From a virus, in IMG/VR virus record IMGVR_UViG_3300015371_000074, positions 1 through 45,885 of that record: DNA of 45,885 nucleotides; one strand, written 5' to 3'. This document shows positions 39,128-39,408 of this stretch, one piece after another. Numbering within the stretch: position 1 is the stretch's first letter; each line of letters starts with the position of its first letter. The notes under the pieces are model-generated. The model did not search any database, had not been told where the DNA came from, and was given only the letters and a program-made list of their open reading frames with translations. The position numbers and the translations under genes are program-made.

Positions 39128-39259
39128 GGTGATGCCGAGAACCAGGCGGGGAACGTACGTTTTTCGATGACCCCGAAAGGTCGTCCTTGGCTGCGAACAG
39201 CCAGGGTGGAATCGAACCACCTAATCCGAAGTAACGCTCTCCTGCGCACCGGCATCACC
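39128..39259 (-). ncRNA. Y RNA 3 (tRNA-like, YrlA type)
   Basis: Closing helix GGTGATGCCG/CGGCATCACC, perfect. Motif GGTGCGCAGGAGAGCGTTAC at the 5' side, CTGGTTCTCG at the 3' side. Insert in permuted tRNA order: T-arm GGTGG-TTCGATT-CCACC, closed acceptor hairpin CTGGCTG-TTCG-CAGCC with one bulged A, then D-arm GACC-TTTCGG-GGTC. No anticodon loop and no CCA end. Length about 132 nt. Confidence 0.85.
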
Positions 39260-39268
39260 GTGTGGAAT

Positions 39269-39408
39269 AGCGACTCCGAGGACCAGTCGGGGAAGGTGAC
39301 GTAAGTGTTCTGCCAGTTGAACTACACGACCGAGGCCGTGACGGGACTCGAACCCGCAACCACTCCTTTACACGAGGAAGTAACCCTCTCCTGCGCACCG
39401 GAATCGCT
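39269..39408 (-). ncRNA. Y RNA 4 (tRNA-like, YrlA type)
   Basis: Closing helix AGCGATTCCG/CGGAGTCGCT, 10 bp with one G-T. Motif GGTGCGCAGGAGAGGGTTAC and 3' CTGGTCCTCG. T-arm GCGGG-TTCGAGT-CCCGT, acceptor hairpin CACGGC-CTCG-GTCGTG, then D-arm GTTC-AACTGGCA-GAAC with the G18G19 pair. First RNA of the array, about 90 bases after the promoter -10. Length about 140 nt. Confidence 0.88.

What the first reader, a model, noticed from the sequence alone, without database searches (positions are those of the whole stretch)
39128..39408. Permuted tRNA mimics: T-arm, closed acceptor hairpin, D-arm
In Y RNAs 3 and 4 a near-perfect T-arm (GGTTCGATTCC, GGGTTCGAGTCCC) comes before the D-arm, and the two halves of the acceptor stem are joined by a TTCG or CTCG tetraloop. 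The free ends leave where the anticodon arm would be and continue into the Ro-binding helix. This is the YrlA plan, where a tRNA-like fold recruits an effector. Standard tRNA finders would miss or misread these genes.
Basis: partly seen in the sequence, partly recalled or inferred. Interest (0 to 1): 0.78.

Follow-up and report, generated by a model that had tools for sequence, protein, structure and literature searches.

The report
Phage YrlA-type Y RNA tRNA mimics
A phage of actinobacterial type carries, just upstream of its Ro60-like (Rsr) gene, a row of four small Y RNAs, one of which is a textbook rearranged tRNA look-alike of the known YrlA class and a second only half of one; this is a well-supported new example of a known kind of RNA that tRNA finders and Rfam mostly miss or mislabel.

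Summary
The finding is real and largely correctly read. On the minus strand upstream of a phage rsr/TROVE gene lie four Y RNAs that share one Ro-binding stem. Y4 (39269-39408) has T-arm, acceptor stem closed by a CTCG loop, and D-arm, in that permuted order. A covariance model built only from other phages scores Y4 at 61 bits (E 2e-16); Rfam YrlA gives E 3e-8 but stays below its cut-off. The three helices covary strongly (13 of 16 pairs). Y3 (39128-39259) has the T-arm and a TTCG-closed acceptor hairpin but no D-arm: its third hairpin is a UUCG hairpin, and its closest relative has none. Y1 and Y2 have non-tRNA heads. The layout is general: 70 of 77 viral and 76 of 80 actinobacterial rsr loci carry such a head about 90-130 nt upstream. 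A helix at exactly the tRNA anticodon-stem geometry supports 'the ends leave where the anticodon arm would be'. ARAGORN misses both window RNAs and miscalls 64 of 242 relatives as tRNAs, some deposited as such. YrlA mimicry is published, so this is a new member of a known kind. Partner and function here (PNPase tethering most likely) are inferred.

The parts
39269..39408 (-). Y4: YrlA-type Y RNA (Ro stem + complete permuted tRNA-like head)
   Evidence: Rfam RF02553 44.5 bits, E 2.6e-8 at 39304-39364; model R1 61.3 bits, E 1.8e-16
39341..39357 (-). Y4 T-arm GCGGG-TTCGAGT-CCCGT
   Evidence: T-loop consensus TTCRANY
39325..39340 (-). Y4 closed acceptor hairpin CACGGC-CTCG-GTCGTG
39307..39322 (-). 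Y4 D-arm GTTC-AACTGGCA-GAAC (A14, G18G19, A21 present)
   Evidence: compensatory GTTC/GAAC to GCGC/GCGC in L046
39128..39259 (-). Y3: Y RNA with T-arm and closed acceptor hairpin, no D-arm
   Evidence: L046 ortholog
39205..39221 (-). Y3 T-arm GGTGG-TTCGATT-CCACC
39188..39203 (-). Y3 closed acceptor-like hairpin TGGCTG-TTCG-CAGCCA
39169..39182 (-).
39034..39116 (-). Y2: short Y RNA, 11-bp terminal stem, non-tRNA head
   Evidence: conserved Ro motif and ortholog in L046
38489..38635 (-). Y1: Y RNA with large non-tRNA head, possible pseudoknot 38575-38583 with 38523-38531
36877..38469 (-). rsr: Ro60/TROVE + vWA protein, 530 aa
   Evidence: Pfam TROVE 2.5e-15; phrog_850 3.3e-52; predicted fold matches phiLo Ro60 and D. 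radiodurans Rsr
39501..39529 (-). promoter-like TTGACT-N17-TAATGT just downstream of a terminator-like hairpin, ahead of Y4
   Evidence: read from sequence; terminator at 39530-39561; the consensus scan did not call the promoter; TTGAC and TGTCTGACA elements recur in L046

Best explanation
The region is a phage-encoded Ro60/Y RNA module. One rsr gene is preceded by four Y RNAs (order of transcription Y4, Y3, Y2, Y1, rsr), all presenting the same Ro-binding stem (5' strand GGTGYGMAGG...GTTACTTC, 3' strand TGGTYCTC) but different heads. Y4 is a YrlA: T-arm, hairpin-closed acceptor stem and D-arm stack into a tRNA-like elbow whose two ends leave through the anticodon-stem position into the Ro stem. 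Y3 is a divergent sibling keeping only the T-arm/acceptor half. Shown: sequence, permuted order, covariation, linkage to rsr, Ro60 fold. Inferred: the stem binds the phage Rsr ring; the head is recognised by tRNA-handling proteins, most likely tethering a host exonuclease of the PNPase type so that Rsr feeds structured or damaged RNA to it, and gates the Rsr cavity when bound. The T-loop is expected to carry pseudouridine at U55.
For: Rfam YrlA match; R1, built without window sequence, finds Y4 at E 1.8e-16; 97.9% of cells paired, 75 double-change cells against 20 shuffled, covariation 0.83 against 0.25; chance test; TROVE plus vWA and Ro60 fold; linkage in 70/77 viral and 76/80 actinobacterial loci, same strand, median 87 and 130 nt from rsr; anticodon-stem-equivalent helix in 26% of RNAs only at tRNA geometry, 68 versus 12.5 shuffled with all 5 pairs; orthologous Y4-Y3-Y2-Y1 series in L046. 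Mechanism: YrlA binds Rsr by its stem and PNPase by the tRNA-like domain in RYPER, and is a DusA/TruB substrate (PMC8394870).
Against: No expression, binding or modification data. The single-sequence minimum free energy fold of Y4 does not show the tRNA-like head; the constrained fold is 3.1 kcal/mol worse. Rfam scores are below the curated cut-off (69). Tethering of PNPase was shown in D. radiodurans, not in phage or actinobacteria. Y4 position 20 is C, so dihydrouridine at the DusA site is not expected. Y3 lacks a D-arm, and many motif-defined Y RNAs in viral loci (70 of 156) have no tRNA-like head.
Confidence: 0.62

Rival explanations
1. Decoy: the tRNA-like heads titrate host tRNA-attacking defence nucleases or tRNA-processing and modification enzymes, with Rsr only stabilising them.
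For: rsr and Y RNAs sit within phage tRNA arrays in BRock, GiJojo, pSt2308, LuckySocke and Atuin; in Salmonella YrlA is not cleaved by the anticodon nuclease and was proposed as a competitive inhibitor (PMC7790460).
Against: The window has no tRNA genes; the same module is ordinary in bacterial chromosomes; the anticodon loop, target of most such nucleases, is absent.
Confidence: 0.15
2. Gate only: Y RNAs occupy and regulate the Rsr ring; the tRNA-like head serves stability or end processing, not recruitment.
For: The Ro stem is the most conserved part across Y1-Y4 while heads vary, and two of four lack tRNA features.
Against: Head helices are under strong compensatory selection and retain T-loop identity across phages and bacteria.
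Confidence: 0.18
3. A permuted tRNA gene processed to a functional tRNA.
For: Order 3' half before 5' half, as in permuted tRNA genes; ARAGORN reads some relatives as tRNAs.
Against: Acceptor halves are joined by a 4-nt loop, no anticodon loop or CCA end, free ends form the Ro stem next to rsr; the ARAGORN calls largely survive swapping upstream sequences between RNAs (43 against 60 real, 2 for random), so they reflect the shared Ro strand.
Confidence: 0.01
4. Remnant of two tandem tRNA genes (T-arm and acceptor of one, acceptor and D-arm of the next) or chance.
For: Junctions in tRNA arrays do give weaker R1 matches.
Against: In Y3 and Y4 the two acceptor strands pair with each other, and they covary in all 7 pairs across relatives; chance rate near zero.
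Confidence: 0.01

Closest known systems
YrlA RNA (Rfam RF02553; Salmonella YrlA structure 6CU1, cited in PMC8394870)
   Same: Ro stem plus T-arm, closed acceptor, D-arm; adjacent to rsr
   Different: Score below Rfam cut-off; four-RNA series with two non-tRNA heads and one half-tRNA head; no rtcBA genes recognised in the window
RYPER (Rsr, Y RNA, PNPase) of Deinococcus radiodurans
   Same: Rsr-fold protein and Y RNA present
   Different: Phage-encoded; no PNPase gene seen in the window; tethering not tested
Phage Ro60/TROVE proteins (Streptomyces BRock, Gordonia VanLee, Thermus phiLo structure 9L5Y)
   Same: Same protein family; most actinophage examples carry YrlA heads near rsr
   Different: Only 37-46% identical to actinophage examples; closest is an unnamed IMG/VR contig at 78%
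tmRNA tRNA-like domain
   Same: tRNA mimicry without anticodon
   Different: No permuted closed acceptor, no tag reading frame; here linked to rsr

Membership tests
YrlA (bacterial Y RNA with tRNA-like domain) | Encoded next to a Ro60 ortholog | tested here: met
   rsr 36877-38469, TROVE 2.5e-15, fold match to Rsr 2NVO
YrlA (bacterial Y RNA with tRNA-like domain) | T-arm, hairpin-closed acceptor, D-arm in that order (Y4) | tested here: met
   covariation
YrlA (bacterial Y RNA with tRNA-like domain) | Same three elements in Y3 | tested here: not met
   D-arm absent; partial R1 match only
YrlA (bacterial Y RNA with tRNA-like domain) | Rfam gathering score (69 bits) | tested here: not met
   44.5 bits; but no actinobacterial or phage relative scanned reaches it either, so the cut-off is uninformative here
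YrlA (bacterial Y RNA with tRNA-like domain) | 5' and 3' ends paired into a Ro-binding stem | tested here: met
   8-12 bp terminal stems and conserved motif in Y1-Y4 and L046
YrlA (bacterial Y RNA with tRNA-like domain) | Binds Rsr | not testable with these tools
   needs co-purification
YrlA (bacterial Y RNA with tRNA-like domain) | Pseudouridine and dihydrouridine in T and D loops | not testable with these tools
   U55 present in both T-loops; D-loop of Y4 has U17 but C20
RYPER complex | Y RNA tethers Rsr to PNPase | not testable with these tools
   no PNPase gene recognised in the window; host enzyme would be required
Functional or permuted tRNA | Anticodon loop, free acceptor end, CCA | tested here: not met
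   no ARAGORN or Rfam tRNA call in the window; acceptor closed by tetraloop

The most novel reading that the evidence does not exclude
Phage and actinobacterial rsr loci deploy interchangeable heads on one Ro-binding stem: full tRNA mimics (Y4), a half-tRNA T-arm/acceptor mimic without D-arm (Y3), and non-tRNA heads (Y1 pseudoknot-like, Y2), each docking a different partner on the same Rsr ring.
Probability: 0.22. Interest if true: 0.55.

Novelty: new member of a known kind. Interest (0 to 1): 0.3.

Why it matters
It documents a clear YrlA series in a phage, shows that the permuted tRNA plan is near-universal upstream of the actinobacterial and actinophage rsr genes sampled, and shows that Rfam's cut-off misses the whole group while ARAGORN labels about a quarter of them as tRNAs, several of which are deposited as tRNA genes. 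It gives tractable phage systems for asking what the heads recruit.

Tried and rejected
Near-identical DNA in the phage collection: none. Single-protein scan of viral contigs: no relative, solved by using an alignment. Rfam at gathering: nothing. Canonical D-arm in Y3: rejected. Tandem-tRNA remnant and permuted functional tRNA: rejected. A true conventional cloverleaf overlapping YrlA, suggested by ARAGORN calls: mostly explained by the shared Ro strand, with a modest excess (60 against 43, sd 4) left unexplained. Host assignment from TerL: uninformative. The primary YrlA papers (Chen 2014, Wang 2018, Sim 2018 and 2020) are not held.

Full report
What is there. The window is a 45,885-base virus record of a tailed phage, with terminase, portal, head protein and prohead protease genes on the minus strand, no tRNA genes, and a 530-aa Ro60/TROVE plus vWA protein at 36877-38469 (minus). 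Its predicted structure (mean pLDDT 79.5) matches Ro60 of Thermus phage phiLo (9L5Y), Deinococcus Rsr (2NVO) and human Ro60. Upstream, on the same strand, four RNAs share the 5' motif GGTGYGMAGG...GTTACTTC and the 3' motif TGGTYCTC, with terminal stems of 8 to 12 bp: Y4 39269-39408, Y3 39128-39259, Y2 39034-39116, Y1 38489-38635. The finding covers Y3 and Y4; the RNA strand is minus.

Check of the observation. Y4 holds T-arm, 6-bp acceptor closed by CTCG, TA, and a D-arm with A14, G18G19 and A21. Y3 holds a perfect T-arm and a 6-bp acceptor-like hairpin closed by TTCG, but its third hairpin is GACCT-TTCG-GGGTC, not a D-arm. A descriptor of T-arm plus closed acceptor finds exactly these two places in the window; Markov-resampled windows give 0.125 per window, and none with a D-arm in 40 resamplings. 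Rfam YrlA (RF02553) matches Y4 over T-arm, acceptor and D-arm at 44.5 bits, E 2.6e-8, below the 69-bit cut-off, and does not match Y3.

Independent test. Eighteen heads from ten annotated phage records (Streptomyces, Arthrobacter, Gordonia and Xanthomonas phages) were aligned. On the permuted structure 97.9% of cells pair, 13 of 16 pairs have changes on both sides, 75 cells carry double changes (20 in shuffles), and the covariation score is 0.83 against 0.25 shuffled and at most 0.21 when slid. A covariance model from these heads, with no window sequence, finds Y4 at 61.3 bits, E 1.8e-16, and Y3 only over T-arm and acceptor, 13.4 bits, E 0.022.

Generality. Viral and genome scans with an Rsr alignment gave 80 loci each, the best of 478 and of at least 513 relatives. 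The model finds heads at E <= 1e-6 on the rsr strand within 1.5 kb upstream in 70 of 77 viral loci and 76 of 80 actinobacterial loci with enough upstream sequence, with median distances of 87 and 130 nt. A motif-based count gives up to seven Y RNAs per locus, so four is high but not unique. The closest relative, L046 (Rsr 78% identical), has five, with counterparts of Y4, Y3, Y2 and Y1 in the same order. Its Y4 counterpart changes the D-stem GTTC/GAAC to GCGC/GCGC, keeping pairs; its Y3 counterpart has a T-arm and one hairpin only.

Where the ends leave. If the two free ends leave through the anticodon stem, five bases before a 5-nt variable loop should pair with five bases after one linker base following the D-stem. 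Among 230 heads, complete 5-bp pairing peaks only at that geometry (26%, at most 6% elsewhere); 68 heads have all five pairs (at variable length 4-5, gap 0-1) against 12.5 when partners are shuffled. The heads are related to one another, so these counts are not independent events. Y4 itself keeps about three of the five pairs.

tRNA finders. ARAGORN reports nothing in the window. In relatives, 64 of 242 heads are overlapped by a tRNA call. In GiJojo, LuckySocke, VanLee, Frankenweenie and Xanthomonas phage 10KY502B, tRNA genes deposited just upstream of rsr overlap YrlA heads. Swapping upstream sequences between RNAs keeps most calls (43 against 60 real), random upstream sequence removes them (2), so the shared Ro strand causes most of the misreading. 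Rfam at its cut-off calls none of 39 loci YrlA, and two of these Y RNAs score as tRNA.

Mechanism. Shown: architecture, covariation, linkage, protein family. Inferred from the literature: YrlA's stem holds Rsr and its tRNA-like domain binds PNPase in RYPER, and the domain is a substrate for TruB and DusA (PMC8394870). For Y4, the likeliest role is to tether a host PNPase-type exonuclease to the phage Rsr ring and to gate that ring. Decoy of tRNA-attacking enzymes (suggested in PMC7790460) and gating alone remain open. No nuclease or RNA ligase partner gene was recognised in the ORFs scanned, although one relative (Kela) has an RNA ligase gene between the YrlA and rsr.

Known or new. YrlA tRNA mimicry is published; from memory, Chen et al. 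2014 reported Y RNAs near Ro60 in more than 250 bacterial and phage species (paper not held). A YrlA was reported in a Mycolicibacterium prophage (PMC8190616), and TROVE proteins in jumbo phages (PMC7824862). Y4 is a new member. The less familiar points are the half-tRNA head of Y3, the mixed-head series on one stem, and the scale of misannotation.

Noticed in passing
window 38489-38635 (-): Y1 head has nested hairpins conserved with compensatory changes in L046, and a loop CCCGAGGGG fully complementary to a downstream CCCCTCGGG, a candidate pseudoknot.
   Followed up: partly
window 39490-39565 (-): A terminator-like hairpin is followed by TTGACT-N17-TAATGT and two TGTCTGACA repeats ahead of Y4; TTGACA and GTCAGACA/TGTCTGACA recur upstream of the L046 array, suggesting a conserved promoter/operator.
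   Followed up: partly
window 6343-12675 (-): HNH endonuclease domain (residues 700-749) inside the 2110-aa tape-measure-like ORF, possibly an intein or homing insertion.
   Followed up: no
L009 3109-3290: Gordonia phage Rabbitrun Y RNA region holds two T-arms, apparently a tRNA/YrlA hybrid.
   Followed up: no
L133, L164, L168, L177, L183, L203 near 2280: Some Streptomyces Y RNAs carry a tRNA-Leu-like D-arm (TGGCGGAA..GGAAGACGCG), so different heads may imitate different tRNA classes.
   Followed up: partly
L011 2535-5165: Streptomyces phage Kela has an annotated RNA ligase gene between the YrlA head and rsr.
   Followed up: no
window 19142-20383 (-): Glycosyltransferase gene within the head gene region; Band_7/SPFH and M23 peptidase genes lie downstream of rsr.
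   Followed up: no
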